A DNA stretch of 64,000 bases from Plasmodiophora brassicae (lineage: Eukaryota; Endomyxa; Phytomyxea; Plasmodiophorida; Plasmodiophoridae), in contig JASFAU010000009.1 in assembly GCA_039704465.1 (NCBI GenBank), forward strand, positions 806,001 to 870,000, in the 5' to 3' direction. Positions within the stretch are counted from its first letter, which is position 1; each line of letters opens with the position of its first letter. A program made the translations under genes and the position numbers. The notes below the pieces were generated by a model, which was given only the letters and a program-made list of their open reading frames with translations, was not told the DNA's origin and did no database searches. Of the stretch, positions 7,128-48,739 are shown in pieces.

Positions 7128-7433
7128 TTAGTGATGCCCCACATGTGGCGGCAGGTCGTCGGCGACGTGCAGCCAGTGATGGTCCCCGTCAGCAACGTCG
7201 TCGCGGTGCTCCTGCCCGAATTCCCCATCGTGGTCGATCGCCGAATGCCCGGCGCCGTGGTGCCGAACGTCCTGCCTGTGATCCGCGTCGCCGAAAATGT
7301 GATGGACGCCGCTCTCGTTCGTGTTGTCGACGTGACCGTCGCCGTGCTCCACAGTGATCGACGTCTCGCCGGCGAACGCGGTCGTGGCGACAAGCACGAC
7401 GATAATGCCGATAAAGAGGGCACCCGGGCGCAT
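7128..7433 (-). CDS. Small secreted His/Asp-rich protein
   Basis: A single ORF of 101 residues. Residues 1-20 (MRPGALFIGIIVVLVATTAF) are a clear signal peptide ending near AFAG. The mature part is rich in His, Asp and Glu (GVHHIFGDADHRQDVRHHGAG and DDLPPHVGHH), suggesting binding of divalent metals outside the cell or in the wall. It belongs by composition with the other four secreted His-rich genes here but lacks the shared ATVT motif. It is divergent from the larger His-rich gene at 7788. A further 3' exon is possible. Confidence 0.55.
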   Translation of the reverse strand: MRPGALFIGIIVVLVATTAFAGETSITVEHGDGHVDNTNESGVHHIFGDADHRQDVRHHGAGHSAIDHDGEFGQEHRDDVADGDHHWLHVADDLPPHVGHH

Positions 7434-7787
7434 GGTACTTCGTTCTGCGATAAGTTAAGTGTGTTTCAGAGCACTGGGGCACGCCTCCGCGACAATGCAC
7501 CTGTCGATGGCCCAGTTGCGTCACGAGGCGAAGATTCGATCCGGGTCGGTGCGCGTGACTCACGACCGGGACGGCGACGGTGACGTCACACTGGGCAAGA
7601 TGACGTCCAGTGCAACGTTCGCCATCTCCAGTCTGATTCATGTCCGCTTAGCCTTCATTCTTATATTTCGTCACCAGCGAACGAAGCGCAGCGTTTGCGG
7701 CCACCCGCATCTATTCGCCCCCCAGCAACAGCAACACTCGTCCCTGTGCGCCTATCTGCAGGGAGGGATCAGAGCACCACGATCACG
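7434..7787. promoter_or_regulatory. Bidirectional promoter region between two His-rich secreted protein genes
   Basis: About 350 bp separate the starts of two head-to-head genes for His-rich secreted proteins, so shared control is plausible. No particular binding site is identified. Confidence 0.35.
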
Positions 7788-8921
7788 ATGACAACAATGC
7801 GGAGTCTGCTGCTCGTCTCGATGCTGGCCATGGCGATGGCCGCCGCCCAGCGACACGACCGGTGGGATCAGGCCCACGGCGCCCGGGCCATCAGCGCCGT
7901 CCACAACGACAACCACGTCAACGCCAACGACAGGAACAAGGGCGAGAACATCCTGCAGCACAAGGGCAACGACAAGTCGAACGTGCAGACGACGGCGACG
8001 CTGACGGCGACGGTGACGGCCACTGACGACCACTCGGACCTGTACTCGAAGCACATGGACAACTCGCACGAGCTGGCCCACGACAACGAGCATCTGCGTC
8101 TGGTCGAACGCGAGGGCGCCCACCAGAACATGGAGCACGACCTCGACGATGCGCACCACGAGCACGACCACGACCACGACCACGAGGCCCTGGACGGCGT
8201 GGCGCACGACGAGCATGACCACGGGCACGGGCACGATGACCATCACCACGGCCACCACGGCCACCACGACCACCACGATTCCGACCACGTCAACGACCAC
8301 AACCCGATCTCGACGCACGCCAACCTGGGCCACGCGAACGGCGGCGAGCTCAACAACTTCGAGTTCGGCGAGGGCGTCCATCCGCACGACTGGCAGCACC
8401 TGCACCCGCACGAGGGCGAGGAGCACCACGCGGACCCGGTCGCCCACAACGGGCACGAGAACGCCGACTTCGGCATGCGACAGCAGGACCACCCGACGTT
8501 CTTCGAGGAGCACGACCACGACGAGTTCCTGGGTGACGTGCACGGGCACCACGACCACCACGACGAGCACGTCCACGAGCCCGTCTATGTGCACGACCAC
8601 GACCACATGCGCGGCCACGACGACCACGAGCACGAGTTCGACCCGATGCTCATGCACGGTCACGAGCACGAGCACGAGCACCATGATGGGCACCACGGCC
8701 ACGACGACCACTTTGGCCACGATGGACACTTTGGTGATCATGATGGTCACTTTGGTCACGACGATGGCCACTTTGGGCACGATGGCCACTTCGGGCACGA
8801 CGGGCACGAGGGCCACTTTGGGCACGATGGCCACGACGGGCACTTTGACCACGACGGACACGACGGGCACTTTGGCCACGACGGGCACGATGGGCACTTC
8901 GACCATGAGTGGGACTGGTAG
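7788..8921 (+). CDS. Large secreted His/Asp/Gly-rich protein with tandem HGHFGHD-type repeats
   Basis: One intronless ORF of 377 residues from the ATG at 7788. It starts with a signal peptide (TMRSLLLVSMLAMAMAAAQ). A short conserved segment, TATLTATVTATDDHSDLYSK at about residues 68-87, is shared with the genes at 48071-48739 and 21389-22168. From about residue 120 the protein is dominated by His with Asp, Gly and Glu, and the last ~75 residues are imperfect repeats of HDGHFG and HDGHEGHFG. No enzyme domain is seen. The composition suggests high-capacity binding of zinc, nickel, copper or similar ions outside the cell. The long antisense frames across this gene are mirror artefacts of its biased codons. 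Confidence 0.85.
   Translation: MTTMRSLLLVSMLAMAMAAAQRHDRWDQAHGARAISAVHNDNHVNANDRNKGENILQHKGNDKSNVQTTATLTATVTATDDHSDLYSKHMDNSHELAHDNEHLRLVEREGAHQNMEHDLDDAHHEHDHDHDHEALDGVAHDEHDHGHGHDDHHHGHHGHHDHHDSDHVNDHNPISTHANLGHANGGELNNFEFGEGVHPHDWQHLHPHEGEEHHADPVAHNGHENADFGMRQQDHPTFFEEHDHDEFLGDVHGHHDHHDEHVHEPVYVHDHDHMRGHDDHEHEFDPMLMHGHEHEHEHHDGHHGHDDHFGHDGHFGDHDGHFGHDDGHFGHDGHFGHDGHEGHFGHDGHDGHFDHDGHDGHFGHDGHDGHFDHEWDW
8700..8915 (+). repeat. Tandem coding repeat, HDGHFG units
   Basis: Roughly 18-bp and 27-bp units encoding GHFGHD, GHDGHF and close variants run to the end of the His-rich ORF. Units differ at synonymous sites, so the array is not freshly expanded. Confidence 0.75.
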
Positions 8922-9021
8922 GCGACAAACCAAACATCGTGACATGACGCGAGCACACTTTCTATGATAAAGTCCATCAACAGCCTTCCGCTCACAATGT
9001 CCATCGCGTGCAGACTGGGCT

Positions 9022-9915
9022 TTACAACGATCGCGCCTTGAGAGATTCGGACGTCGACTGCTTGATCCGCAGGCGAACGTAATTGATGGGGAACGCCGCT
9101 ATCGCCAACCCGCACATGATCGCGGGCGCGTGATGCCTGGGAACGTTGGCCCAAATGGAGTGCAGGCAGGTCGCGAACGTCGTGCCAATCGTGCACCCCG
9201 CCACGACGTCGGAGCAGTAATGCACGCCGAACCACACTCGGGCCAGGCCGAGCACGAGCGCCAGGAGGGCGGCGACTCGCCAGTCGTAGACAGGCCAGTA
9301 GGAATGGAACCACATGACAGCGACAGCGGCCCCGGCGGCGTCACCCGATGGAAACGACGAGTGCGTGTCGTCGACAGCGTGCAGAGCGAACACATGACGA
9401 CGCTTCGATGCCACAGGGAACCCGTGATGCATGGTGGAGAACGGGCGCCCGCGCCTGACGATCTGCTTCAACGGGAACACGGCCAGAGCCGATGTCAGCA
9501 GCCAGGCCAGCATGTACCCGACCTGGGCATGCAACGCGTCCGACGTCAGCATCGCGACGGAGCACGTGCCCGTGTACGCCAGCGCGATCAGCGCCCACGA
9601 CACATCGTACGGGACCGTGCCAGGGATCCATTCGCGGTACAGGCAATACGATACGCCGATCCAGGCGATGAGCACCGGGGCTACGCCTACCCACGGGAAC
9701 GCAGGCGGGACGGGCTGTGTCAGAGCAACGCCAATGATCGGGATCAATGGCAGGAACAGCGGGCACCCGAAGACGTACGACATGGGGAACCAGATTCGTG
9801 TCAGCCAGACCCAGTCGAGCCGGTACAGCGTCGATGTCAAGGCGCGGTCGACACCCGTCGCCATCATCATCATCGGCCGCCGGGTGGGCCGACCGATTTC
9901 TACAAATAGCCGCAT
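9022..9915 (-). CDS. PAP2-family membrane phosphatase
   Basis: A single exon of up to 298 residues with five or six hydrophobic segments. All three PAP2 signature blocks are present in order: KQIVRRGRP (K-x6-RP), SFPSGDAAG (PSG-H/D type) and ARVWFGVHYCSDV (SR-x5-H-x3-D type, here with Ala-Arg in place of Ser-Arg). The family dephosphorylates lipid phosphates such as phosphatidic acid or sphingoid-base phosphates at membranes. The second block reads PSGD rather than PSGH; the Asp stands where the family usually has a His needed for catalysis, so activity should be checked. The start is uncertain: ATGs lie at 9915 and in the MMMMATG run, and an upstream exon (see 10060-10534) is possible. Confidence 0.82.
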   Translation of the reverse strand: MRLFVEIGRPTRRPMMMMATGVDRALTSTLYRLDWVWLTRIWFPMSYVFGCPLFLPLIPIIGVALTQPVPPAFPWVGVAPVLIAWIGVSYCLYREWIPGTVPYDVSWALIALAYTGTCSVAMLTSDALHAQVGYMLAWLLTSALAVFPLKQIVRRGRPFSTMHHGFPVASKRRHVFALHAVDDTHSSFPSGDAAGAAVAVMWFHSYWPVYDWRVAALLALVLGLARVWFGVHYCSDVVAGCTIGTTFATCLHSIWANVPRHHAPAIMCGLAIAAFPINYVRLRIKQSTSESLKARSL

Positions 9916-10059
9916 CGGAGGGTGGCGGCGCTGTCTTGGCGCCCCACCGGGAATGTATTCGCCGCCACTCTCCTGCCTCGCCTGTTCTGCCCTGCCCTGT
10001 TCTTATCGCCTAGGGGCTCAGGACGGACCTTCTGGAGATGTATTCATATGAATACGTGG

Positions 10060-10534
10060 CTTACGCGTCATAGAAACCTCGGCGATACTTACGGGCAGGG
10101 TGTTGGGCAGACCAGGCGAAACAAGAGAATGACAGGGACAGCGCCATGACCGCGCGCGGCGCTCTGAGGCGGCGCCGCTGTGCGCATTCCATCGGCTACT
10201 GGTCATGGCCGGGCGACGCTGCACACATCGGCATGTCGTCGCAGGGCAGCAGAGGTGCTCCCCGCTCTGTGGCGGAATCCGCCTCGATCGACACGTTGCC
10301 GGGGTTGGCAATGCACCAGCAGGACGTTGCCCGGCATCATTGTCATCGACGTCTGCCGTTGAGCTTGCCGGCGGCGACGGCCACGGTTGGCTGGGTCGGC
10401 TTGGGCATGCGGCTGCATCCTCCGTCGACGTTACTGATGGCGGCGTCCCTGGTCTTTGCAGCGTCTTCGTCGTTGCCGCTCTCGGCGCTTCTCTCGACCG
10501 GGTTCGAGACTCCATCCACCGGACCGGCAATCAC
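10060..10534 (-). CDS. Possible 5' exons of the PAP2 gene or a small unknown gene
   Basis: On the minus strand a hydrophilic segment from 10534 (GVSNPVERSAESGNDEDAAK) is followed near 10145 by MALSLSFSCFAWSAQHPA, a signal-peptide-like stretch that ends at a perfect GTAAGT donor. The next acceptors lie just upstream of the PAP2 ORF. No complete frame could be assembled, so this is only a candidate. Confidence 0.25.
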
Positions 10535-10986
10535 AGCGTTCTTCCGGACACGACGCCCAGGAACTCGGCCGGTGCGGGATCATTAATTACACGTTCAACT
10601 GCTTCCACCGCGGCTCGAGCGTGGTAGTTTTCCTCATCCTTGTGTCGAGGGCGTCCATCCAGCGTACCTGGCGCTCGGTCAGTCAGAACGTCGGGTCGAT
10701 TGCGGGTCCGGCATCCGTCGAGACGATCCTCTTCACGGGCGTGTGGCGCCGTCAGCTGAGCATAGTCGTTCAGCTCGAATACCACGCAATCGATACCGAC
10801 CCCAGTGTCGGCTCTGCTGAATGCAGCGCCCGAATGCGCCAGTCGATGATGGGCCTGAGCAATATATTGCACCGTACCGTGCCTGGCCGAGAGGTTGCGG
10901 TCGCTGGACCCAATGCATTGGGCGTTCGTGCACGGGATGTGATTCGTGATCCAGGATGCCACCGTATGCGCGTCGTCGCCCGAGAT

Positions 10987-11124
10987 GCAAGGTCGAACAT
11001 GAATCGCTTCTTGCCGCTTGCCCACATAGTAGTAATTCTTGGCAAGATCCGCGTAGTTCTCCATCTTCCACCCGGAGTGTTCCTCGTTCAGGGCTTTCTC
11101 CATGCACCCGACGAACTCGTTGAT
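10987..11124 (-). pseudogene. Frameshifted inverted copy of the FVECMEKALNEEH element
   Basis: About 138 bp on the minus strand are about 93% identical (by eye, about 9 substitutions and one indel) to 11324-11460 on the plus strand. The copy encodes FVGCMEKALNEEHSGWKMEN and then loses frame because of one extra A near the YYYVG codons. The family is not recognised. Confidence 0.6.
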
Positions 11125-11301
11125 CAAGCCGTGGCCTCAACTTTCGTTACCGTTTTAATCCACACCACTAAACCGAGTGGCGTGATCGGGCACGTAACCT
11201 GCAAGGGGTTGCGCTCAACGGGGTTGGTGGAGGAGGTTGCACCTAGGAGGGAGCGGGCGAAGCGCAGCGAGCCCCGAACGACTAGTCCCATATGCTAAAA
11301 T

Positions 11302-11518
11302 GCCAGTGTTTAGGCGGAAGAGCATTAACAAGTTCGTCGAGTGCATGGAGAAAGCCCTGAACGAGGAACACTCCTTGTGGAAGTTGGAGAACTACACGGA
11401 TCTTGCCAAGAATTGCTACTACGTGGGCAGCGGCAAGAAGCGATTCATGTTCGACCTTGCGTGGGCGGAGGTTCGCAGTCTCCCGAAGTTCGCGGTGAAC
11501 CAGTCACGCCTGACGTGA
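11302..11518 (+). CDS. Short ORF carrying the intact FVECMEKALNEEH element; gene or remnant
   Basis: From an ATG at about 11302 the frame gives about 72 residues: FVECMEKALNEEHSLWKLEN, then YYVGSGKKRFMFDLAWAE and a stop at 11518. The composition is protein-like (mixed charged and aromatic), but no family is recognised. An inverted, frameshifted copy lies about 200 bp upstream, so this may be a fragment of a duplicated or mobile gene rather than a functional one. Confidence 0.4.
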
Positions 11519-11820
11519 ATGGCATTCAACCATCGGGAACGAATGCTCTCCCAGGATCGTATCTGCACAAAGTCCTAAAGTGTCCTTAATCAGTTCGTGG
11601 AAATGCTCGGCAACACGACGATAAAACGTGTCGCCGTCCTGGTCCGCCCCACCAGAGGCATCCGTCGTAGTCGTCCGGTAGGCCCTGGCGATTAGAACGT
11701 CTTCAGCGGTCGTGAAGTTCTTGGCCCCTGTCTGCTTGCCTCGACGACAAGGGTTGTCGCCTCCGACGGGGTCCCGCTCATTTCGACTGCGTCGGGTACC
11801 GCGTGGTCCAGTTTAATGAC

Positions 11821-11846
11821 TTTACCTAAACGGTTAGGTTTAGGTA
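11821..11846. repeat. Short inverted repeat (TACCTAAAC / GTTTAGGTA)
   Basis: Nine-base arms TACCTAAAC and GTTTAGGTA flank a loop of about six bases. Just downstream AACGGGTGG occurs twice, about 20 bp apart. The function is unknown. Confidence 0.5.
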
Positions 11847-12590
11847 CAACGGGTGGGAAACGAATTCAACGGGTGGATATGCTCTTAGGAGACGCGGACA
11901 TGAGTGCCGATTAGAGGATGTTCATTGAGAGATCGGCCACCGTCAGCTGGAAACAGGCGTACCGCTGGAAAGGGCAGTGATAAATTGAGAGGCAGCTAGG
12001 CTGTCTGCGCTGGCACACGTGCCACCGCTCCTCTCGTATCGCGAAGAGCGTAGCGCAGCTTGGCCAGATTGGCTGATTTCGCTAAGTCAAACTGAAAGTT
12101 GGTGGGAGTGCGCAGAACGCCTGGCAGGCTCGTTTGGCACTGCCGGTGGATCATTCATGGATGGTAAATACCGCCGACTCGTTCTCCAGCAGACCTGCGC
12201 CCTGATGATCAACCATGGCTAGACCGTGCGCACAGTGGTCTACTTTGTGCATGATTGCTGTTAGCATTGCTCGGTTGCTTCCGCGTTTCCTGTCAGGGTC
12301 AGAACTTGATGCGGTACATTGTGCGGCGACGACACATAACGTCTGAGACGCCTTGATGCATCTGATCTCTGCGAGCCAACCTGGCCTGTCGTCAAGAATT
12401 TCTGCTTCCTGCCTATGGCGCGGACAGTCACATCTCTTGCGTCAGGCCTTGCCTTCATATCCGACAAACCGTTGTGGCACGCCACTGATACGGTATGTTT
12501 TCCAGTCGTTTCTGCATGTGGTATTGTTCAAGGCTCTCGGACTAGGAACTCGTCCTGGTATCGATGAGTCTGGGCCGTTGCTAGAGAGCA

Positions 12591-12615
12591 CAATTCTGCA
12601 CTAAGTGCAGAATTG
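12591..12615. repeat. Perfect 12-bp-arm palindrome
   Basis: CAATTCTGCACT and AGTGCAGAATTG are exact reverse complements separated by one A. It is long for a chance palindrome and could be a hairpin or a site for a dimeric DNA-binding protein. No gene start is close. Confidence 0.7.
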
Positions 12616-12849
12616 CCACGAAGCGTCCTCTATCAACAGGCGACGCGGCGGCGACCGAACTTCTTCTGGACGTGAAGCCGGATGATTTGCCGACGAAGTC
12701 GGTGTAGACGTCCCCCGGTTGTCTGGAAGAGATCGAGACGGAAGTCGCGGACGAACGACTCTGAACTTTAGCTACAAGTACAGGCCTGTTGTCACGCCGG
12801 CCGCAACGACGCTTCTGATTTCAATTACGCTATTACGACGTGAACGTGT

Positions 12850-13749
12850 TTATCCTGCTACGCCAAGGACCGTTCGGTTGCGATCGGTCACCATGGACTG
12901 CGACGTGATTTCGCTGTCGCAGACGGGGCACTTGAAGTCGGGCGCCATACGGGACGCGCGCAGGCAGTAATAGCAGAACAGGTGGTTGCACGACGACATG
13001 ACGGGGACGGTGATCGGATGCGCGCCGCACACGCCACAGGAGCCGTCGTCGCCGGACTTCACCGTCGTGCTCTTGCCGAACGCCTTCCGCATCAGCGAGC
13101 GCAGCGCGCTGGTGTTGAGCAGCGGGACGATGAACAGGAGGAACTCGCTGGCGCCTGTCCAGACCAGTTCCTGGTTCATGAAGTCGAACGTCAGCTGGCG
13201 CTGGACGCGTGGCCGTCGGTACCGCAACTGGGCGCCGACGATCCGATCCGTCACCGACCGGTAGACGCTTCCGTACAGGAACGCGATGCGGTTGACGATG
13301 ATGGCGACCCGCAGGAGAATGTGGACGCGGTCGGCGATGCGTGCCGGTGCATGATGCTGCGCTCTGGCGAAGACCCAGGGGAAGATGACCGTCAGCAGGC
13401 CGTGACAGACCCGGGCGGTTCGCGACATGGGCGCGTATTCCAGGTTCTGCAGTTGGTTCCCAGGCGACGGGACACCCGCGCCGATCGTGAACGCGAACAC
13501 AATCCCGCGAACGATCGCATCGATCTCGGGCGTGAACCGCTGGACGACCGACGGGGCAATCGGCGACAGGGTCGTCGTCAGCTGCCCGTGGATATACCGA
13601 TCGAGTTCGGCGTCCAGCTCGACGGCATCGACCTGGTTGACCCGGTTCACGACCGATGTCGCGCTGCGCTTCGGCCGGGCGTCATCAGCCCGTGCCTCGA
13701 GCCATGACGCCGCCGCCGCCGACGCCGCCTGCACGTCCTTGTCGCCCAT
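12850..13749 (-). CDS. PEX2: Peroxisomal RING E3 ubiquitin ligase PEX2
   Basis: A single exon of about 299 residues. The N-terminal block NRVNQVDAVELDAELDRYI is the family hallmark. Hydrophobic segments in the middle (TVIFPWVFARAQ, HILLRVAIIVNRIAFLYGS, ASEFLLFIVPLLN) are the membrane part of the peroxin. The C-terminal RING reads CGVCGAHPITVPVMSSCNHL, then FCYYCLRA and CPVC. PEX2 works with PEX10 and PEX12 in the peroxisome membrane to ubiquitinate and recycle the import receptor PEX5. The start MGDKDVQ at 13749 was chosen; upstream in-frame codons look like leader sequence. Confidence 0.88.
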   Translation of the reverse strand: MGDKDVQAASAAAASWLEARADDARPKRSATSVVNRVNQVDAVELDAELDRYIHGQLTTTLSPIAPSVVQRFTPEIDAIVRGIVFAFTIGAGVPSPGNQLQNLEYAPMSRTARVCHGLLTVIFPWVFARAQHHAPARIADRVHILLRVAIIVNRIAFLYGSVYRSVTDRIVGAQLRYRRPRVQRQLTFDFMNQELVWTGASEFLLFIVPLLNTSALRSLMRKAFGKSTTVKSGDDGSCGVCGAHPITVPVMSSCNHLFCYYCLRASRMAPDFKCPVCDSEITSQSMVTDRNRTVLGVAG

Positions 13750-13963
13750 CGGTGCCATCGGCACCCACCACCACGGACAAAATATTCCCAGTGGGCAGCT
13801 GCTACCTGGCGGGGGGGACAGGAACACGACCACCTCGTCAACCGTTCGCCTGGTCCATGTCGCAGTGATGGCCAAGTGAGCAATCTGCGCTGGGACAGGG
13901 CGGGTGGCTGGAGGAATCCGAGGCCGTCACACAGCGCTGCCCTGGTCCCCCGTGGGGGTACGA

Positions 13964-21388: not shown

Positions 21389-22168
21389 ATGAAGGCGACG
21401 TCCATAGTGGCCGTCGCGCTCGTCATAACCCTGACCGTGCTCCCCAGGACCCTCTCGTGGAACAGTGGTATGGTCACAGTGGGGAATGATGTCTGCCGCA
21501 TGCGCTCATTGTGATACCGTCTTAGATTGGCATAGACACGACGACGAAGCTGAGCTTGAGCATCTAGATGACGAAGACAGCGACCACGAGCATGATGAGG
21601 CAAACCACCACCACCACCACCTAGGATTCCCTTCCAACGACTATCATAAACATCAGCACGAGCGACGAGAAGACGAAGACTTCCACCAGGATGCTGGCGA
21701 GCACGAAATGCAAGGCGTGGCCAAAGACAAGGCAAAGGTCATGACCAATGCGGCTATCTCTGCGACCGGTAGTACTGGACACCATATCCGAATTGTGCTG
21801 GCATCTGATTCCTGTGCCTAGTGACCGGGACGGACACCCACTCTAACGAGCACCACGACAGCGAAAACCATGAAACCGAGCATCACTCGCACGACGAGAA
21901 CGACAGAGACGACGAGCATGCGAATGGCGACAGCACGCACCATCACGAGGACGATCTTGACGAGGAAGAAGACGACGATGACGATCATCACCACCATGGA
22001 CATGACCACCACGATGATCACCATGGGCATGACCACCATGAAGAGCATCACGGACATGATCACGACGAACATGACGATGATTCCGACCACCACCACCATG
22101 GGTTTGACCATGGGCATGATCACCATGGACATGATCACCATCGGCCGGGACATCACGGCCACCACTGA
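21389..22168 (+). CDS. Secreted His/Asp-rich protein with conserved ATVT motif
   Basis: Three exons (21389-21467, 21526-21768, 21822-22168) give 222 residues. Residues 1-23 (MKATSIVAVALVITLTVLP and on) are a signal peptide. Exon 2 is acidic and His-rich (DDEDSDHEHDEANHHHHH). The second splice (donor GTAGTACT, acceptor CCTAG) creates AAISATVTGTDTHS, which lines up with the conserved motif in the genes at 7788 and 48071; this supports the exon model independently. Exon 3 is His/Asp-rich to the end (GFDHGHDHHGHDHH). A metal-binding extracellular role is inferred from composition only. By my count the length equals that of the 48071-48739 protein (222). Confidence 0.72.
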
Positions 22169-39534: not shown

Positions 39535-42114
39535 TCACCGATGAGCAAGTTCTTGTGCGCCTGCTTGGCGAAGAGTATGCGATAACGACGCCTTGTACAG
39601 ATCCGCTTTGGTGACTAGCACGCCGGCCTGCTTCATTCGTTCCAACGTTTCGACTGCGTGAGAACGCATTCCTCGTCGACAGTATGCACCGACCATTGCC
39701 TTGAACAGAGACGGATCCGCGTCACCAGCCCGACATTGGGCAGCGAACATGTTCTCAGCAGCGTTAATGTCGCCGCAAGCATCGAAAGCAAATAGTAGCG
39801 CAGACCCGAGTACGACGTTCTGTGTGAGCGAACGATCGCATGCATATTCGTATAACGTACGAACAAAAGCCACATTGGCGCGCCGACCGCAGGCGACAAC
39901 GAGGACAGACAGGGCAATGCTGGGCACCGGGACGCCTCGGCCCACGAGTGTGTTAAAAACTGTGAAGGCTTCGTCAATGCGGTTCGCCCTAGCGAATCCG
40001 CACAGAATACTGAACGTTTCATCTCGTTCGAGGGGGAGCCCGGACAACGCGTACTGCTGGAACAGTTCCGCAGCCTCGCTGAACCTTGCATGGCGCACGA
40101 ACGCGGCCATCATCGCATGGAACGTAGCGACATCGGTGTTGCGACGCGACTGGAAGATGTGCATTGCTGTGTTGACATCACCACATAAATCATAGGCAGC
40201 AATGAACGCGCACAGGACGATCTCATTCGTCAGTAACCCGTGCTCCTGGGCGTAGCGACGGAGCGAACGCAGAGACAAGACATAAGACAGTCTACCACAC
40301 GACGCGACAAGAGAGGCGAAGACAGGCGTATCGACGACGAAACGTTGCGACACCATTGCGATAAACACGGACAAGGCTTCAGCAACCCGGTCACCTTTGA
40401 CGAGAACCGACAGAATCGTCGTGTAGGTCTCCATGTTCACCGGCAATCTGGAGTCTTTGACATGCTGAACCACAGCCAGTGCTTTCTCTAGCATGCCATG
40501 GTGGCTGTAGGCGGCAATTATAGCATTGAACGTCTCAACGCCTGGCCGAGTAACTGATGTGCAGCGAGCAGTGAAAACGCGTTCAGCCCCCTCCAGGTGC
40601 CGACAACGGTCGTAGGCAGAAATGAAGGCACTCGCAACAGCATCATGTTTCAGAAGCATTTTCACATGTTGCTCGAGGGATTGAACGTCAGCAAGCTCGA
40701 CGCAACGCCCATATGCGGCTGCGAATGCACTGACAACAATGACGTTTTTCAGGAGCGAAAAGCGGCTTGCATGCTGGTACAACTTGCGAAGCGCTTGTGA
40801 ATCGGAAGATCGACCGCATGCACCTACAAGCATCGCAAATGCCGGATAGCTCACTGGAGCAGTTCCATGATCGGACAAGGCATCAAAGACTTCCAGGGCC
40901 TGATGTACGAGGCCAGCTTTAACAAGGATGGAAAGAACGTTGTGCAGTAATTTCATGTCGAAACGAAGTCCGACATGCTTGAATCGTTCGTACACGGCAA
41001 GCGCACGCTGAACCATGCCGCGCCGGTTATACGCGGCCATCATGGCGTTGAGAGTGTGCACGTTTGGACGGGCGGAACTGGCATCGAAGACCTTCTCCGC
41101 GGCATCCAGATCGTGACATAAATCATACGCTGAGATGAATGCGCTTGCTACGATCTCGGACTGCAACAGGTTCTCGACAGCTGCATACGAATGGAGAGTT
41201 CGTACAGTTGCGACGTCGGCGGCACGACCGCAAGCTGCAATGAGGGATGCCAGAACTGGTGAATCGACCGCAACGTTCCCGTCGACCATGTTCTGAAACA
41301 CAACCATTGCTTGTCTGGTGTCACCGTGTTTGGCAAGTGCGGACAGGATATGAGTGTACATCTGGACAGGAATAGGCAGACGAAGCGATGCCATGACAGA
41401 CATCACGTTGTACGCTTGCTCAAGGCGTTTCTGCAGGATCAACGTTTTCATGAGGTTGCCAAACGCCGGACCATCTGGCAACAACGCGCCGCGCTTGGAC
41501 TGTATCAACTGAAGCAACCGTTCCGCAACGTCTGCCGCGAATGGCAATCTGGCTTCAGCGCAGCATACTGCGAAGACGGACAAAAGACCAACGGTGATAT
41601 GGTCAGGCGCTATCTGAACGGCATCCAGGATCACTGGCAGCGCCCTTTCGGGCTGCTTCGCAAACCTGCACAGGCGGGCTATGGCGAAGAGCGTTGCATG
41701 CGAACGAGGCGCGCATTTAAAGTACAGTGACAGAGCTTCGTCCACAAGAGGAGGGATCCCCCTCTGACAAGCGTCCAGAAAGCCGCAGAACAGGGGGCCA
41801 TCCACTGGTACATCATGCGAGACAGCAGCGGCTAGCACATCCGGTGCCTTGGACTGCATTTGTCGTTTGCAGAACGACATCACCAGATGGAAAAACTTGA
41901 CACCAAGCTCAGCCCTGGACTCCACCACCATCTGAAACACGTGCCACGCCCGGCCAGGATCATCTTCCTGCCTCAGCGCCATGCTCGCCAGCGCCACCGA
42001 CGGACACGAAACGAATCGTTGAAACGCGTCCGACGCCGCCTGTACGCGCCGTCCAGCAACCAGCGCCACCCGACGCACGCCCCGACATCTTCCAAATGGC
42101 ACCCGAACCAACAT
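39535..42114 (-). CDS. Large pentatricopeptide repeat (PPR) protein, probably mitochondrial
   Basis: One uninterrupted ORF of 859 residues. The N-terminus (MLVRVPFGRCRGVRRVALVA) is basic and amphipathic, as in mitochondrial presequences. The rest is a tandem series of roughly twenty 35-residue helical hairpins such as HTLNAMMAAYNRRGMVQRAL and MYTHILSALAKHGDTRQAMV. PPR arrays bind single-stranded organellar RNA and guide processing, stability or translation. It has no obvious C-terminal catalytic extension. It is intronless in a region where most genes are split. It is head-to-head with MTG1 (217 bp), another mitochondrial gene-expression protein. Confidence 0.88.
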   Translation of the reverse strand: MLVRVPFGRCRGVRRVALVAGRRVQAASDAFQRFVSCPSVALASMALRQEDDPGRAWHVFQMVVESRAELGVKFFHLVMSFCKRQMQSKAPDVLAAAVSHDVPVDGPLFCGFLDACQRGIPPLVDEALSLYFKCAPRSHATLFAIARLCRFAKQPERALPVILDAVQIAPDHITVGLLSVFAVCCAEARLPFAADVAERLLQLIQSKRGALLPDGPAFGNLMKTLILQKRLEQAYNVMSVMASLRLPIPVQMYTHILSALAKHGDTRQAMVVFQNMVDGNVAVDSPVLASLIAACGRAADVATVRTLHSYAAVENLLQSEIVASAFISAYDLCHDLDAAEKVFDASSARPNVHTLNAMMAAYNRRGMVQRALAVYERFKHVGLRFDMKLLHNVLSILVKAGLVHQALEVFDALSDHGTAPVSYPAFAMLVGACGRSSDSQALRKLYQHASRFSLLKNVIVVSAFAAAYGRCVELADVQSLEQHVKMLLKHDAVASAFISAYDRCRHLEGAERVFTARCTSVTRPGVETFNAIIAAYSHHGMLEKALAVVQHVKDSRLPVNMETYTTILSVLVKGDRVAEALSVFIAMVSQRFVVDTPVFASLVASCGRLSYVLSLRSLRRYAQEHGLLTNEIVLCAFIAAYDLCGDVNTAMHIFQSRRNTDVATFHAMMAAFVRHARFSEAAELFQQYALSGLPLERDETFSILCGFARANRIDEAFTVFNTLVGRGVPVPSIALSVLVVACGRRANVAFVRTLYEYACDRSLTQNVVLGSALLFAFDACGDINAAENMFAAQCRAGDADPSLFKAMVGAYCRRGMRSHAVETLERMKQAGVLVTKADLYKASLSHTLRQAGAQELAHR

Positions 42115-42331
42115 CTACTCTGTACGTCCCCCAAACAAAACACCGTGACCGGTGCAGCTCAGCGTCGAATGCACCTCACCCGGAATCATCGCTGAGCTGT
42201 ATTGACACGCTGCCCAAATGTCACGATAAAATAATAGTCCCAACGTTTCCGACAGAGCGTAGCTTCGGCGTTGCGTTGTTCAGGTGGCGTGGTCCGGACG
42301 TCATTTTGGCGACTGCGACGCTGCTGCAGCG

Positions 42332-43234
42332 ATGTCGCGGGGCCTGTCCTGGTTCCCGGGGCACATGGCGGCGGCCATGCGGGAGATGGCGTCGTCGCGC
42401 GTGAAGCAGGCGCACATCGTGGTAGAGGTTCGCGATGCGCGAGTCCCGTTCTCGTCGGCGTGCAATGCGGCGGCGATGTCCGTTGTCCCGGCCCGGAAAC
42501 GGTCGTTGATCCTGATGAACAAGACGGACCTGTCGGGGCTATCGCCGCAGACCCAAGACGGCATCGCCAGACGCATACGTGAGGAGCAGCCGGATGCAAA
42601 TGTCCTCTTCATATCTGCGAAATCGCAGCACCGTACGGAACGGGACGTGCTCAGCGTGATTCGTCAGCAAGCGGCGGGCCTATCGAGGTTTTCCAGCACA
42701 ACGCGTGTCGTTCTGATCGTTGGCGTCCCGAATGTGGGCAAGTCGACCATCCTCAACTGTATCCGGCGGTCGTCGGCCTGCAAGGTCGCGGCTCAGCCCG
42801 GTTGCACCCGAATCATCTCGGAGCACAAACTCCCGGGGCTGCTGCTGCTTGACAGCCCTGGGATTCTGCCGCCCAACATACCCGACGAGGTGACGGCCGC
42901 ACGTCTGGCGCTGACGCACGCGATCCCTGACCATTCCGTGGACAAGCATGACCTCGTTACGTACCTGCTACAATGCCTGAACACGCTGCCCGCTGCACTG
43001 GGCGGGTTGTCCTCGAACGTATCGAACACCGAGACGCTGCTGGAGGAGGTCGCAAGGCGGAGGAGATTCCACCTGGGCAACGACGGCGAATGGGATGTGG
43101 ATCGCGCAGCATCGTTCCTCGTAGCCGAGTACCGTGCCGGCAACCTCGGTCGTCTCTGCCTCGATCCCTTGGACGAGTTCGGGGTCCTACCCGCTGAGCG
43201 ATGCCGCCACCCGCCTCGATCATCGCATTGCTGA
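42332..43234 (+). CDS. MTG1: Mitochondrial ribosome-associated GTPase 1 (YlqF/RbgA family)
   Basis: A single exon of 300 residues. The G motifs are circularly permuted, the mark of this family: G4 (MNKTDL) comes first, G5-like (FISAKS) next, then G1 (GVPNVGKST), the G2 region (QPGCTR) and G3 (DSPG). The N-terminal block LSWFPGHMAAAMREM is also diagnostic. These GTPases act late in assembly of the large ribosomal subunit; the eukaryotic Mtg1 works on the mitochondrial inner face. No separate presequence is obvious at the chosen start; an in-frame upstream start-like codon would add about 16 residues. Confidence 0.9.
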   Translation: MSRGLSWFPGHMAAAMREMASSRVKQAHIVVEVRDARVPFSSACNAAAMSVVPARKRSLILMNKTDLSGLSPQTQDGIARRIREEQPDANVLFISAKSQHRTERDVLSVIRQQAAGLSRFSSTTRVVLIVGVPNVGKSTILNCIRRSSACKVAAQPGCTRIISEHKLPGLLLLDSPGILPPNIPDEVTAARLALTHAIPDHSVDKHDLVTYLLQCLNTLPAALGGLSSNVSNTETLLEEVARRRRFHLGNDGEWDVDRAASFLVAEYRAGNLGRLCLDPLDEFGVLPAERCRHPPRSSHC

Positions 43235-43439
43235 ACGTAACAAACCGTAACGTTATTATGGACAGATTTGTTATGGGCGTCGGCGCCGCAATCCCTTGGT
43301 CGGCACAGAGTCGCAGCCACAGACTGTGTGGAGTCTGACGACAATCTACTGGGGTACTCCACATTCGTAATTGGGACTTGGGCAACGCGTGGGCCAACCT
43401 CGTGGCGGCTCGGGCCATAAACTTTGTCCTTGCGCTGCG

Positions 43440-44337
43440 ATGACGTGGTCGGTTGCTGTCGCGTTGTTCTCGCTCGCGTTGGCCGTTTCGGCGGTTGATG
43501 GTGCTCGAGGAAGGCGCCCCGGCAGCGTAAGCCAAGTCCAGACGACCGTCAATGGCCTATCGACGTTCAACTGGTGCGGCAAGCGCAACATGGTCGCGTT
43601 GACATTCGATGGCGGATTCTCCTTGGAAACGGTCGACCTGCTTGTTGATCTCAAGCGCCTGGGCATCAAAGCGACGTTCTTCCTCTCAGGCCCCGCTGAC
43701 GAAGGGGACTGCGACGTCTTGTCCATGATCATCAGAGACGGCCACGACATTGAGCATCGTAAGGACAATTTGAAATTGCAGGACGCGGCGTATTTACACA
43801 GTGTATAGATTCCTGGTCGCATCCCTACCTGACGAAAGTGTCGCTCGACCAGTTTGACGAGGAGATCACGAAGATGGAGGACCATGTCTACAACGTATGC
43901 GGCGTCAGGAACCGCAAGATGACCTTGTTCCGCCCACCGTTCGGCGACTTTAACCGTGAGCTCACCCTTCGTGTCAACCGGCAGGGCTACACCGCTGCTA
44001 GGTCGTTCATCGCTTGCTCTCGCTCTTGCACCTGGTTGCTGACTAGTTCACGTTCAGCTGGACGTTCGACACGGAAGACTACAATGGCGGTAATGCCGAA
44101 AGCGTGTTCAAGGCTGCTGTAGAGAAATTCAAGCGCCTGCCTCGTGGAAGCTCTGCCGTCATCCTCCACCACGACTTCACGTACAGCGAGCAGGGCATCA
44201 AGGGCATTGTCGACATGTACAAGTCGTTCTTCCGCGGGTACCAGTTCGTCACCGCCCGCGAGTGCTACGAGGCCTGCTTGGCAGATGGCGACTGCCAGGC
44301 CCCAATCGACAACTGGCCCGGGGTCTTCGACTATTGA
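43440..44337 (+). CDS. NodB-type polysaccharide (chitin) deacetylase
   Basis: Three exons. A signal peptide (TWSVAVALFSLALAVSA) leads to motif 1, MVALTFDGGFS. A splice (GTAAGG ... GTATAG) joins DIEHHSWSHPYLTKVSLDQF, the metal-binding HSxSH motif 2. Motif 3 is TLFRPPFGDFN. A second splice joins SWTFDTEDYNGGN, and motif 5 is SSAVILHHDF. The family removes N-acetyl groups from chitin or related glycans at the wall using a divalent metal. Motif 1 normally reads TFDDG; here the second, metal-binding Asp is Gly, so activity may be reduced or altered. The C-terminus has paired Cys residues (ECYEACLADGDCQ). Confidence 0.84.
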
Positions 44338-44468
44338 ACGTCATGGTTACGGAATACACGAACGCGTTGAATGGTGTTATGTTATCAGAAGGTGACTACC
44401 ATAAACGGCCCAGCCTCCGATGTCATCGGCCGATCTCATGACCGGGATCTCTCTCCTAAAACGCAGCC

Positions 44469-45072
44469 ATGAGAGAAGACTGGAGCGTTGCACCGGGTGC
44501 CGAATTGCTGGACCGGCCCGACATCTCTGTCATCGAGCACGACATGGATTCGGACGATCTGGAGATAGCGCTAGCTATCGTGGAGTCCGACTGCGAGTGC
44601 CCAGAGGTGCTGACCGAGCGCCTGGCCGATGCCGGACTGGGTTGCGGGTGGACCGCCATCACTGCAGATGACCCGAACCTGCTGGTCGACATTGCCGACT
44701 ATGACGTCGGCACATTTGCCCGGCTCCGGATCAATCGCAGAACGTTCGTCATTTGGAGGTTCACGCCAACCGCCACGGCCGATCAACTGAAGGCGGCCAA
44801 GTGGGCAGCTAAGCAAGAAGAGGCCGGCGAGGCGTCACTGTCGCGTTCCTACCGGTACTGGTCGAGCGAGGAGATGGAGAACCTTCGTCTCGGACACGAT
44901 AGGTTTGGCAATAACTGGGCCAGGATACTGAGCGAATACAAATTCGATCACAGATCGGCTGTCCACCTTCGTCAGGTGCGCATGTGCATCATGCTTCTAT
45001 TGCCACTGATTGTCGTTGTGTCTGCAGAAATGGAGGAACATGTCGAAGCACGCGAATGCCTCCGAACCATGA
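44469..45072 (+). CDS. Telobox-type Myb/SANT domain protein
   Basis: Two exons: 44469-44975 and 45028-45072 (intron 52 nt, GTGCGC ... TGCAG), 183 residues. The N-terminal two thirds are acidic and unfamiliar (DSDDLEIALAIVESDCECPE). The C-terminus is a single Myb repeat, RYWSSEEMENLRLGHDRFGN and NWARILSEYKF; the splice completes the third helix as SAVHLRQKWRNMSKHA. This corresponds to the VDLKDKWRN telobox of telomere-repeat-binding proteins, with HLRQKWRN in place of DLKDKWRN. Possible roles are telomere binding or transcription control in the nucleus. Without the splice the Myb helix would be broken, which supports the exon model. Confidence 0.75.
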
Positions 45073-45139
45073 GCAACCGCTCAATACAGGAGTTGCTTGC
45101 CGGGCAAGGACAGTGTGGGGTTTAGATATGATACTTCGC

Positions 45140-46080
45140 CTATGCTCCGTCGACGGCAGCGCTGGCCTCAGCAGGTTCGTTCTCGTATTCGATCTCGACA
45201 TACGACGAGCGTTTCTTGCGGCGAACGTATTTCGGGACAGGCTCCTCGGGAAGCTCGTCGCTGATGTCGCTGCCGGACATCAGATCCTCATCGTAGTCCT
45301 CCATGTCGTCGTCATCCATGATATCGTCATCATACGCCTCGACGAACTCGCTTTCCTGTTCGAGCTCGTCTTCGTCATCGGTGACGGCGACCTCCTGGAG
45401 AGCCTCTTTGTACTGCTGCATGGGGAAGTTGTAGATATCGCCATACGTGCCTTGCTTCAACCGTTCCAATAGCTCATTCTTGATGCAATCCGTGATACGC
45501 GCTGCCTTTAGAGCCTTCTCCTCGCGTCGGGACTCTCTTCGATCCAGTTTCTTTGAAATGCCAACCAATTTCGGTCTGGTAGAGATGGCATCAGGAAGAC
45601 TGTTACGATCCCACAACGCGGGTATTACCTAACGGTCAGCTGGAGTCGCCGCATACGAATAAGGTATTGATGAATCTTCGTCATGCGTTGCTTGCAGCGG
45701 TGGATCATGTGCGAGGGCCAGTGGATGAGTTCTTCATCGATGCGCTTTAACGCCTGCGTGTAATTCTTCGGAAGCAGGATCTTCTCCCATAGGTTCTTTG
45801 GCGAATGAGCTCTCTCAATGGTCTTCACCCACAGGTACAGCTCACCTGAGGTTACAGCATTTTAGAGCGTATGCAAAAGACAATTCTGACAACAGCACTA
45901 GGATTCACCATCTTGCTCCTTGACCGTTGCGTATCGACTATTGGCCAAAGGGCATGATACGCGATTACACAGTCCGGTGACGTTGTCTGGATTCCGGCAG
46001 AAGTCATGCGTCCGCGTTTTGGTCTTGTACGAGCAGAAGCTGTTGGCCACACAGGACCATATCATGTCATCGTGCTGCAT
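45140..46080 (-). CDS. MAK16: MAK16 ribosome biogenesis factor
   Basis: Three exons. Exon 1 (from 46080) begins [20 protein letters not shown] and includes [20 protein letters not shown], the conserved Cys cluster that may hold an iron-sulphur site. A GTGAATCC/CCTCAG splice leads to [20 protein letters not shown] and [20 protein letters not shown]. The last exon gives [20 protein letters not shown] and [20 protein letters not shown] followed by an acidic tail with a basic KYVRRKKR block. MAK16 acts in the nucleolus with RPF1 in 60S subunit assembly. All conserved blocks are present. Confidence 0.92.
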
Positions 46081-46342
46081 GGTGGTTCGCTACCACGATT
46101 CACGGGGAACACCTGAACCACGTCGCAATCCGCCACGGACTCCGTGAGCACCGCCACGGAGTAAACTCAACCATGTCAGCTAACGTTCGCAAATAACCTG
46201 AACGCGACTGGCTCTGCTGCCGCTTCGTCCTTCTTCCCGATGGTACGATATGAGACAGGGCACATTCGGATATTCATGGGTAGAACTGGAAATCAGTGAA
46301 TTGGTTGGATTTATGAGAACATGCGGGGTGCTGCTCCCGGAT

Positions 46343-47098
46343 CTATTCCTCCATCGGTGCTTCAGCGCGCTCGACAGGCTTGCCGGCATCCTTGCCGAGG
46401 CCGGCGTGGATGTCGAGCAGGTGTTGCGTGTCGACCTTAGGGACATGCAGAGCCTTGACCTTGCGAATGAAGACGTTCTGCAGCGGGTAGATGCCCTGGC
46501 ACGCCTTCTCGATCTCCTTGCCGATCGTCTCGGGGATCAGCTTGCCGACGAGGCCCATGGCATCGACTGTGCTGACCTCGCGGTTCAAGATCTCGACGAT
46601 CTTCTTGCGGATGGCACGGATCTGAGACGACTGCGCGTACGACGTCTTGCGGATCTGGTTCATGCGCTTACGCGTGAACGCGATGCAGAAGACGCGCAGG
46701 ACAAACCCATCGGTGGTCTTGACATCGGCGTGCGCCTCAATCAGCGTTTGCCACTTGCGGCACAACGAGCGAAGCTTGTCGGTCGTCAGGTCCATACCGT
46801 AGAAGTTCGTCAGGCAGTTCCGTCCCTGAACATCCTCGACCCGAAGCTTGAACTTGCGGAACGCTTCGTCCTCGCCGTCCTTCTTCAGGTCGCCCAGGGA
46901 CACCTCGAAGACACGGCCGCGCAGCGAGTCGCCGGCCAGTCTGTTACCGGACGTCCTGGTGACGACCGTCTTGCCGACCTGGCGGACCTCGAAGACGGAT
47001 GGCGCCTTCACGTCATACCATTCCTTCTTGGCGAAGGGGTCCTGGACCTTCTTACCGCCTTTCTTCTTGCCACCGCGCTTTCCCTTGCCGGCAGCCAT
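46343..47098 (-). CDS. 40S ribosomal protein eS1 (RPS1/S3A)
   Basis: A single exon of 251 residues with the full family sequence: a Lys/Gly-rich start ([17 protein letters not shown]), [60 protein letters not shown] and [20 protein letters not shown]. It is a component of the small ribosomal subunit near the mRNA exit channel. The long plus-strand frame over this gene (46250-47350) is an antisense artefact. An intron-free ribosomal protein gene is somewhat unusual for this intron-rich window. Confidence 0.95.
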
Positions 47099-47322
47099 GT
47101 TCGAAGCGGTGCAGAAAACGATGCTGAGCGATGCCGTCGCACTCCAGGACTCCGTGGCGCATTCCGCAACTATACGATGCTGCCCCTAATATCGGGACCT
47201 CGCGTCCTCATGTCCAGATTCCGCCTGTACAATCAGGGGACACTAAGTCGAAGTACGCGTGCCATCGACCATGACGTCAACAGACTCTATTGTTGTTTCG
47301 CTGTCGATTTAGCAGAGGCGAA

Positions 47323-48011
47323 ATGCGGTCTCGCGACCTCGTTGTCCTGACTGTCGCCGTTCTTCTGGCATGCTCGTACGCCAAGAAGCATCACGATGAC
47401 GACGACGACCATCACCATCATCACGTTGTGGGGACCGTACGCGTGTGCACAACTTTCCCTGAGTTTTGAGCATTCAGTTTGACGACGGTGATGACGATGG
47501 ACATTGGGAACGCAACAAGTTCTCCATGAACCACGACCACAACAGGCACGGCCACCGTCATGGCCACCATGATGACGTACGTCCGTTACTGTACTTTTAT
47601 ACGTATGTTCCTATCATTATTGCTAACTTTAGAGTACTCTGTAGGATCACGAGTTTGGACCGGACGATTGGGAAGACTGGGACACTGCCGATGACGTGGG
47701 TGTCTCTCTCTGGACTGCCATAAAGATACATCTGACGGCGCATGGCTCAGGCGCTGCATTCCCGTCACCTGAAACATTTACATGACAGACAGCACAAGGT
47801 ACGCGCTTGTCAGAAATATTATTGGAGGTGTAAACGGTGACTTCCCGCTGTCCAGGAGGGTCATAATGATGATGACGACCACCACCATCACTGGATGATG
47901 GACGATGATGATGACGATCATGGCCACCGCCATCATGGTCATCACGGTCATGACCACGACCACGAAGAGCATGACGCACCTCATGGGCACGGCCACGGGC
48001 ATAGACATTAA
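47323..48011 (+). CDS. Secreted His/Asp-rich protein, five exons
   Basis: Exons 47323-47436, 47478-47576, 47645-47695, 47751-47798 and 47856-48011 join in phase 0 to 155 residues. The signal peptide MRSRDLVVLTVAVLLACSYA precedes KKHHDDDDDHHHHHH. Exon 3 is acidic (DHEFGPDDWEDWDTADD). The 48-nt exon 4 encodes ALHSRHLKHLHDRQHK, and the last exon is His/Asp-rich ending APHGHGHGHRH. Every intron is 41-68 nt with GT/AG ends. It lacks the ATVT motif of its relatives. It is tail-to-tail with the His-rich gene at 48071. Metal binding is inferred from composition. Confidence 0.66.
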
Positions 48012-48070
48012 TGAACTGAAACGCGACCGGGGAACATGTGATATGCAGAGTTTAGTGACGCTTGGTTAGA

Positions 48071-48739
48071 TTAATGGAGGAGATGCCGAGGGCGACGATG
48101 ATGGCGATGATGATGTCGGCCATCATGGGAAGGAAGGTCGTCGTCGTCGTCGTCGTCGTCTTCATCCTCACCGTCTTCATCCTCATCGTCTTCATCCTGG
48201 CGGTGGTGATGGCGATGATGATCACGCCTATCAATATCATCGTCGTCCCAATCACCATCCAAATCGTCGTCGTCGTCGTTTTCCTCATCATCGTCAAGAC
48301 GGTGGTGGTCCACGTCATGGTGCTCACCTTGAACATGGCCATGCCCTTCGTCAACAGGAGCGACCAGATGATGGCGCACATCGTGGTCGTGGCCAACGTG
48401 CACCTTCTCGCGTTCCCGTATCCGGTCTTCTTCAGCGACGTACATATAGTCATCCGATGACTCTGCCATCTTCGAATGCACGTCGGAATGGTCGTCGTTC
48501 GCTGTGACCGTGGCCGTTAGCGAAGCCGACGTTTTCACGTTACTGAGATCCTTTCCGTTTTCCATGTAAGCGTGTTCGCCCCGGTTCTTGATATTGGCGG
48601 CCGCAAGCCCTTCGTTAGCATCGTATTCGCTTTTCCCAACGGTGTCATCCACCAGGACACGCTCGGAATCGTCAGCGACAGACAACGCGACGATTGCCAG
48701 AATCAGGAGGACCTTGCACATAACCCACGAACGAAACAT
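48071..48739 (-). CDS. Secreted His/Asp-rich protein with conserved ATVT motif
   Basis: A single exon, 222 residues from the ATG at 48739 (a second ATG at 48721 also fits). The signal peptide CKVLLILAIVALSVADD is clear. The segment NVKTSASLTATVTANDDHSD, with flanking residues before and after, aligns with the 7788 protein (NVQTTATLTATVTATDDHSD). The rest is Asp/His/Glu-rich with an Arg/His-rich C-terminus (GRHHHRHHRRPRHLLH). Proposed as an extracellular metal or polyanion-binding protein; no enzyme domain. Confidence 0.8.
   Translation of the reverse strand: MFRSWVMCKVLLILAIVALSVADDSERVLVDDTVGKSEYDANEGLAAANIKNRGEHAYMENGKDLSNVKTSASLTATVTANDDHSDVHSKMAESSDDYMYVAEEDRIREREKVHVGHDHDVRHHLVAPVDEGHGHVQGEHHDVDHHRLDDDEENDDDDDLDGDWDDDDIDRRDHHRHHHRQDEDDEDEDGEDEDDDDDDDDLPSHDGRHHHRHHRRPRHLLH

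What the first reader, a model, noticed from the sequence alone, without database searches (positions are those of the whole stretch)
7128..48739. Dispersed family of secreted His/Asp-rich proteins with a shared ATVT motif
Five genes (7128-7433, 7788-8921, 21389-22168, 47323-48011, 48071-48739) encode a signal peptide followed by extreme His/Asp/Glu enrichment. Three also share a non-His core: TATLTATVTATDDHS, SASLTATVTANDDHS and NAAISATVTGTDTHS. In the third gene the core appears only after intron removal. A conserved core inside biased sequence argues for common descent, not just convergent composition. The family could be an extracellular metal-buffering or wall-associated system. I recognise no described family.
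Basis: partly seen in the sequence, partly recalled or inferred. Interest (0 to 1): 0.78.

Follow-up and report, generated by a model that had tools for sequence, protein, structure and literature searches.

The report
Clubroot parasite's histidine-rich secreted protein family
The clubroot parasite of cabbage and a relative carry an undescribed family of secreted proteins packed with histidine and aspartate, many built round one of two short conserved sequence tags, which probably bind metal ions outside the parasite's cells.

Summary
All five genes exist at the stated places and three share a core (module A, 'DKSxVQTxATLTATVTATDDHSD') beyond chance (36 of 36 pairs of nine members exceed all 1000 shuffles). 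The organism is not a fungus: it is Plasmodiophora brassicae (clubroot; Rhizaria, Phytomyxea). Gene 1 carries module B, 'GDTxxxVxHGDGH[VI]D', right after the leader. It occurs at 10 genome places against 0 for the reversed pattern, and in Spongospora subterranea and unnamed database proteins. Module A has nine members found in the genome and a Spongospora relative. 14 of these 19 genes lie in two clusters, C9:800-855 kb (reaching into the window) and C16:42-135 kb. Gene 4 has neither module. Fourfold sites between module-A paralogues are saturated while the protein is kept. Pfam, NCBIfam and PDB sequence searches give no real match; AlphaFold2 gives no confident fold. Best reading: disordered, secreted, metal-binding proteins, known so far only from plasmodiophorids, in which A or B anchors or assembles. 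Metal binding, location and P. brassicae expression are inferred. Fungal zincophores and sponge glassin are analogues only.

The parts
7128..7433 (-). Gene 1: secreted His/Asp-rich protein, 101 aa, module-B class (P0003)
   Evidence: open frame; recovered as P0003 by the module-B profile, of which it is a row, E 4e-30
7317..7370 (-). Module B of gene 1, GETSITVEHGDGHVDNTN, right after the leader
   Evidence: coordinates checked; V-x-H-G-D-G-H in all 17 aligned proteins, which were found by this profile; 10 genome places vs 0 for the reversed pattern
7434..7787 (.). 354-bp gap between the divergent genes 1 and 2, possibly a shared promoter region
   Evidence: gene order only; shared control is inferred, and A-B pairing is no more than chance inside the clusters
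7788..8921 (+). Gene 2: secreted His/Asp-rich protein, 377 aa, module-A class, with a degenerate GHDGHFGHD repeat tail
   Evidence: open frame; tandem repeats 8697-8899
7965..8051 (+). Module A of gene 2, GNDKSNVQTTATLTATVTATDDHSDLYSK
   Evidence: coordinates, alignment, shuffles, genome search
21389..22168 (+). Gene 3: secreted His/Asp-rich protein, 222 aa after removal of introns 21468-21525 and 21769-21821, module-A class
   Evidence: splice model; best-scoring relative is C16:72 kb, whose module is uninterrupted
21720..21847 (+). Module A of gene 3, split by the intron 21769-21821
   Evidence: E 8e-8 and 2e-5 for two exons of this gene
47323..48011 (+). Gene 4: secreted His/Asp-rich protein with neither module, 141 aa in a four-intron model
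   Evidence: no Pfam match; association by composition and neighbourhood only
48071..48739 (-). Gene 5: secreted His/Asp-rich protein, 222 aa, module-A class
   Evidence: open frame
48470..48556 (-). Module A of gene 5, GKDLSNVKTSASLTATVTANDDHSDVHSK
   Evidence: coordinates, alignment, shuffles, genome search

Best explanation
These genes belong to a multigene family, found here only in plasmodiophorids and unnamed database proteins, of secreted, mostly disordered proteins. Most members carry one of two short conserved modules (A or B) attached to His/Asp/Glu-rich stretches. Most likely mechanism: the His/Asp arrays bind many divalent metal ions (Zn, Ni, Cu, perhaps Mn or Ca) outside the parasite. 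The conserved module fixes the protein in place or in an assembly. Module A reads as an amphipathic strand with a ladder of Thr/Ser on one face. Module B reads as a tight turn, HGDGH, that puts two His and an Asp side by side near the mature N-terminus. Together they would form a metal-buffering or metal-scavenging layer at the parasite surface, in the interface with the host cell, or in a spore wall. Shown by computation: the genes, the two modules, common descent, constraint on the protein, conservation in Spongospora, clustering. Inferred: secretion (leader sequences only), metal binding (composition), the roles of A and B (residue pattern), location and purpose.
For: Module A: nine genome members, all 36 pairs above 1000 shuffles. 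In seven of the nine copies (gene 3 and C14 left out because introns interrupt or adjoin them) codon positions 1/2/3 are 60/71/45% identical, and fourfold third positions match about as composition predicts, 0.366 vs 0.347: old copies of a constrained protein. In the C9:802.7 kb protein (P0019) against Spongospora P0021, residues 145-199 are 76% identical and the rest 36%; residues 161-180 are 95%. Module B: 10 genome places vs 0 control; V-x-H-G-D-G-H invariant in 17 of 17 aligned proteins, all found with this profile; Spongospora P0005 at E 6e-17. Composition 13-31% His, 16-27% Asp. The genome-wide pattern H[DEG]H[DEG]H[DEG]H gives 19 hits vs 7 reversed, at 9 loci: 8 encode His-rich proteins with a leader, the ninth a cation-efflux transporter. 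Plasmodiophorids lack genes for His and Thr synthesis (PMC4471660, passage), so rich use of His suggests selection for its chemistry. 14 ZIP loci in the genome, 11 with a match over the cut-off, two within 25 kb of a member.
Against: No metal-binding or localisation data were found, and no expression data for these genes in P. brassicae. Of the 8 His-repeat loci with a leader only 4 carry A or B, so composition and modules are separable; P0019 has module A with little His enrichment. The ZIP neighbourhood is a post hoc test with p about 0.03; no ZIP match lies near the C9 cluster, and the C16 ZIP gene is 14 kb from the nearest module gene with at least two other genes between. A-B gene pairs are no commoner in the clusters than label shuffling gives (0.55). 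Both AlphaFold2 models are of low confidence. The module-A model puts a helix at residues 159-172, within the core and mostly below pLDDT 50, which speaks, weakly, against a strand; the gene 1 model shows no strand at module B. The structural reading of both modules therefore rests on residue pattern alone.
Confidence: 0.45

Rival explanations
1. Structural wall or coat proteins: A and B assemble the proteins into the resting-spore wall or another extracellular matrix, and His/Asp arrays cross-link through metal ions. Metal is glue, not cargo.
For: Low-complexity, no cysteine framework (at most one Cys in any of the five), low AlphaFold2 confidence; repeat tail in gene 2; many divergent copies with constant short modules; Thr-ladder pattern of module A.
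Against: No wall proteome or stage data seen; no carbohydrate-binding domain found.
Confidence: 0.27
2. Host-directed secreted effectors that act in the plant cell, for example by withholding metal from host enzymes or by binding host proteins.
For: Leader sequences, lineage-restricted so far, clustered copies; obligate intracellular biotroph with 553 predicted secreted proteins (PMC4471660, passage).
Against: The P0019 core is 76% kept between a Brassica and a potato parasite, against the fast divergence I would expect of effectors (recalled). The passages shown of two effector papers (PMC12503489, PMC6177251) name no such family.
Confidence: 0.15
3. Silica or other mineral deposition, as with sponge glassin, whose His-rich and Asp-rich parts promote silica deposition.
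For: Closest composition met in print (PMC10772126, passages); other Rhizaria make silica (recalled).
Against: No match to the silicon transporter model PF03842 in the genome (its prokaryote control genomes hardly test that model); no report of mineral known to me.
Confidence: 0.03
4. Histidine/nitrogen store for a parasite that cannot make histidine, laid down in spores; or low-complexity drift of GACCAC repeats without function.
For: Missing His synthesis genes (passage); repetitive DNA in gene 2.
Against: Drift does not explain modules kept while synonymous sites are saturated; a store needs no conserved N-terminal HGDGH.
Confidence: 0.1

Closest known systems
Fungal zincophore Pra1/Aspf2 (with receptor Zrt101)
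   Same: Secreted, His-rich, takes zinc outside the cell; flexible His-rich end (PMC12663325, abstract and passages).
   Different: Pra1 has a folded core with an HRXXH site, disulphides and a syntenic receptor gene, and is called unique to fungi there. Here: no such fold found, a Rhizarian, no ZIP gene next door. HRxxH strings do occur once each in the His runs of genes 3, 4 and 5, as chance allows in such sequence.
Glassin and perisilin of glass sponges
   Same: Signal peptide, His-rich and Asp-rich unstructured region (PMC10772126, passages); glassin also has an HT, by recall His/Thr-rich, domain.
   Different: No sequence comparison was run; no silicon transporter match here; modules A and B were not met in the passages.
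Animal and parasite His-rich proteins such as histidine-rich glycoprotein, Nereis jaw protein Nvjp-1, malarial HRP2 (recalled)
   Same: Extracellular or exported, His-dominated, metal-binding.
   Different: No A or B module known to me; no comparison run beyond the PDB profile searches, which gave nothing.
P. brassicae PBTT_06342, PBTT_05948, PBTT_08747, PBTT_08748 and P0019 (database name 'Tetratricopeptide repeat protein 38')
   Same: These are members of this family in the same species.
   Different: Four are named only 'Uncharacterized protein'; the TPR name of the fifth has no Pfam support.

Membership tests
Fungal zincophore (Pra1/Aspf2) | HRXXH zinc site in a folded core | tested here: not met
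   HRxxH strings occur once each in genes 3, 4 and 5 but not in genes 1 and 2; no Pfam family, no PDB sequence match for either profile, no confident fold
Fungal zincophore (Pra1/Aspf2) | Neighbouring ZIP receptor gene | tested here: inconclusive
   ZIP matches at C16:102.5 kb (14 kb from the nearest module gene, about 6.5 kb from a His-rich gene without module) and C14:986 kb (20 kb); none near the C9 cluster
Fungal zincophore (Pra1/Aspf2) | Zinc binding and re-uptake | not testable with these tools
   needs purified protein
Glassin-like silica proteins | Signal peptide plus His/Asp-rich domain | tested here: met
   (composition; leader by simple rule or reading)
Glassin-like silica proteins | Silica-forming organism with silicon uptake | tested here: inconclusive
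   no PF03842 match, a weak test; silica itself not tested
Module-A family defined here | GxDKSxVQTxATLTATVTATD core with shuffle support | tested here: met
   genes 2, 3, 5; genes 1 and 4 have no such core; candidate C16:412 kb rejected, C16:85 kb inconclusive
Module-B family defined here | VxxHGDGH[VI]D after the leader | tested here: met
   gene 1; in the window only gene 1 matched
Collagen / collagen-like adhesin | Gly-X-Y triple-helix repeat above cut-off | tested here: not met
   gene 2: 24.4 bits vs cut-off 27.2; NCBIfam 19.2 vs 400 and 18.2 vs 325

The most novel reading that the evidence does not exclude
Plasmodiophorids run a proteinaceous extracellular metal-capture system of their own, outside fungi: two secreted classes (module A and module B) that hold metal in His/Asp arrays and feed the parasite's ZIP importers, so that an intracellular parasite can draw Zn or another metal from the plant cell.
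Probability: 0.17. Interest if true: 0.78.

Novelty: new variant of a known kind. Interest (0 to 1): 0.52.

Why it matters
Clubroot and powdery scab are caused by obligate biotrophs that cannot be grown alone and whose surface and metal biology are poorly known. A secreted family with two clear sequence tags, kept in both parasites, gives markers, antigens and test proteins. If it captures metal, it would be a protein metallophore outside fungi, where the fungal one is called unique (PMC12663325, passage), and would make metal supply a testable lever on clubroot. The reported lack of histidine synthesis makes the heavy use of histidine more telling.

Tried and rejected
Single-protein search with gene 5 residues 1-115: 84 candidates, none at E <= 1; only profiles reached relatives (in one search only the 7994 candidates sharing most words were scored, so four hits is a lower bound).

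The ATVTA DNA pattern: 124 hits against 467 for the reversed control, useless. A wider pattern: 48 hits vs 38 control. Seven of the 48 are family members, C16:52 kb being new; I read 14 others without finding one and left 27 unread, so nine members is a lower bound.

Possible module A at C16:412 kb rejected (z 0.3-1.9 with all others) and at C16:85 kb left open (z 4.7 with gene 2, 3.5 with C16:72 kb, 3.0 with gene 3, at most 2.7 with the rest). Full-length shuffle scores (300 shuffles) for gene 4, z 6.5 with gene 5 and 4.3 with gene 3, I put down to runs of H and D and did not take as homology; gene 2 vs gene 3 full length reaches only z 2.6 (3 of 300 shuffles as good) because His-rich sequence swamps the core; gene 1 vs gene 2 gives z 1.2.

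A-B pairing as a sign of joint work: no better than label shuffling. Silica: no PF03842 match. No relative in prokaryote genomes for B (343 pattern matches, none confirmed) or in viral contigs for A (267, none). The conserved C-terminal tail of P0021 matched only its P. brassicae counterpart in this genome. AlphaFold2 models were too weak for a fold search, so none was run. Papers: 'Plasmodiophora brassicae' + 'histidine-rich' gave three papers, none on this by title and abstract start; locus-tag stems, two UniProt accessions and HGDGH gave none; other searches. Supplements were not readable here, so a table may list these genes.
Full report
What was checked. The five genes are present at the given coordinates. 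Genes 1, 2 and 5 are single open frames; genes 3 and 4 need short introns. The gene 3 core is indeed joined only by splicing out 21769-21821. Splice sites are GT-AG; the paper on this genome gives an average intron of 60 bp (PMC4471660, passage). No transcript was available to me, so the splice models of genes 3 and 4 remain predictions.

Organism. A profile of module B found database proteins that match loci of this genome under the name Plasmodiophora brassicae (PBTT_06342, PBTT_05948, PBTT_08747), and a module-A profile found PBTT_08748. The species is a plasmodiophorid in Rhizaria, not a fungus. The genome held is 25.3 Mb in 21 contigs, and the window is C9:806001-870000.

Module A. Searches with single family cores and DNA patterns gave nine members: window genes 2, 3 and 5; C9:802.7 kb, 3.3 kb before the window; C16:52, 53, 72 and 88 kb; and C14:965 kb. 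In all 36 pairs no shuffle of 1000 reached the observed score; z ran from 4.9 to 24.2. The module lies towards the start (genes 2 and 5), the middle (C9:802.7 kb) or the end (C16:72 kb, C14:965 kb) of proteins that differ widely elsewhere, so it is a unit of its own. It alternates Thr/Ser with Ala, Leu, Ile, Val or Met. Over seven of the nine copies (gene 3 and C14 left out because introns interrupt or adjoin the module) codon positions 1, 2 and 3 agree in 60, 71 and 45%, and fourfold sites agree in 56 of 153 comparisons (0.366), with 0.347 expected from composition. The copies are therefore old, and the protein has been kept.

Module B. Gene 1 lacks module A. A His-rich locus on C11 showed the same start of the mature protein, AG[DE]TxITVxHGDGHVDNTN. 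The pattern VxxHGDGH[VI]D occurs at 10 places in the genome and 0 times reversed. All 10 were read: C5, C9 (two, one of them gene 1), C11, C16 (four), C17, C18; nine show a leader in the same frame, and C16:42.8 kb seems to have its start in an upstream exon that I did not look for. No protein read here carries both A and B.

Relatives. The module-B search gave 17 proteins at E <= 1: five named P. brassicae, the window's own gene 1, one Spongospora subterranea, and ten unnamed from the sources jgi and lgn, by their short contigs mostly metagenomes. Of these ten, P0009 and P0011 match loci of this genome, which leaves eight others, among them one very short (P0013, 61 aa) and one weak (P0016, E 0.02); the named P0017 is also weak (E 0.98). 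V-x-H-G-D-G-H is invariant in all 17, which were selected by this profile. The module-A search gave four: two P. brassicae, one unnamed, one Spongospora. P0019, P0020 and P0021 are counterparts; their core is far better kept than the rest (76 vs 36% for P. brassicae against Spongospora). The Spongospora data of 2015 were a transcriptome (PMC4471660, passages), so these two relatives are probably transcribed; that the two database entries come from it is my inference.

Genome layout. Of 19 A and B members, 6 lie in C9:800-855 kb and 8 in C16:42-135 kb; 35 pairs lie within 60 kb, against at most 8 in 20,000 random placements on 21 equal contigs. Further His-rich genes with a leader but no module lie beside them (window gene 4; C16:95 and 96 kb) and on C4 and C16:412 kb. 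A-B neighbours within 3 kb number three, which label shuffling reaches in 55% of cases, so they say nothing about joint function. A genome-wide His-repeat pattern gave 19 hits against 7 reversed, at nine loci: four are A or B genes, four are His-rich genes without a module, one is a cation-efflux transporter (Pfam PF01545).

Known families. Pfam scans of the five window proteins and of the relatives gave nothing credible; the only matches were collagen for gene 2 below its cut-off and four single-member matches at E 0.02-0.09. NCBIfam gave two collagen-like matches for gene 2 far below cut-off. PDB sequence searches with both profiles gave none at E <= 1. AlphaFold2 gave mean pLDDT 55.7 and 57.2 and pTM 0.18 and 0.22: no confident fold, in keeping with disorder, though shallow alignments (6 and 17 sequences) also lower confidence.

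How it may work. Long His/Asp/Glu stretches bind divalent metals in many studied proteins (established knowledge, recalled). With no fold and no enzyme motif found, the likeliest use is a polyvalent metal-binding layer. The conserved short modules need a job that composition cannot do. For B, two His and one Asp in a five-residue turn near the mature N-terminus suggest a defined metal site. For A, the Thr/Ser ladder suggests strand pairing or a binding surface. Whether the metal is cargo (capture), glue (wall) or bait (denial to the host) cannot be told here; I put these at 0.45, 0.27 and 0.15. The genome holds 14 ZIP loci as I grouped the 21 matches, 11 with a match over the cut-off; two lie within 25 kb of a member (post hoc, p about 0.03). 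Between the His-rich gene at C16:96 kb and the ZIP gene at 102.5 kb lie at least a tRNA-His guanylyltransferase and one unidentified gene.

Novelty. In the paper searches made no description of this family was met. Seen as abstract or passages only: PMC4471660, PMC12503489, PMC4815078, PMC6177251, PMC10772126, PMC7415369, PMC12663325. It resembles known His-rich metal-binding secreted proteins in composition but showed no sequence kinship to any family searched, hence 'new variant of a known kind'.

Noticed in passing
L095 (C16:97401-103600), 582-1668: A tRNA-His guanylyltransferase (Thg1) gene sits next to the C16 cluster of His-rich protein genes, in a species reported to lack histidine synthesis; probably coincidence.
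   Followed up: partly
L085 and L086 (C16:54.4-70.4 kb): A segment of about 4.2 kb is repeated at 93.6% identity between the family genes of the C16 cluster, with further partial and inverted copies; looks like a mobile element, not analysed.
   Followed up: partly
genome G000, 14 loci: 14 ZIP metal-transporter loci (11 with a match over the cut-off) in an intracellular parasite; best match C16:494.5 kb. No comparison with other species was made.
   Followed up: partly
L013 / P0019 (C9:802.7 kb): Database name 'Tetratricopeptide repeat protein 38' for a module-A protein without any Pfam TPR match; probably a naming error.
   Followed up: yes
L083 (C16:880 kb): Cation-efflux (CDF) transporter with a His-rich loop, the one of nine His-repeat loci that is not a His-rich protein with a leader.
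   Followed up: partly
window 8697-8899: Degenerate tandem repeats (periods 18 to 45 bp) encode the GHDGHFGHD tail of gene 2 and may allow length changes between strains.
   Followed up: no
L063 (C9:202980-203183): Weak match (E 0.11) to a module-A query with two stops inside; could be chance or a decayed copy. Not analysed.
   Followed up: no
P0017 / P0015 (PBTT_01001, PBRA_001786): Another module-B protein of P. brassicae that did not appear among the 10 pattern hits in this assembly, so 10 is a lower bound for the species.
   Followed up: no
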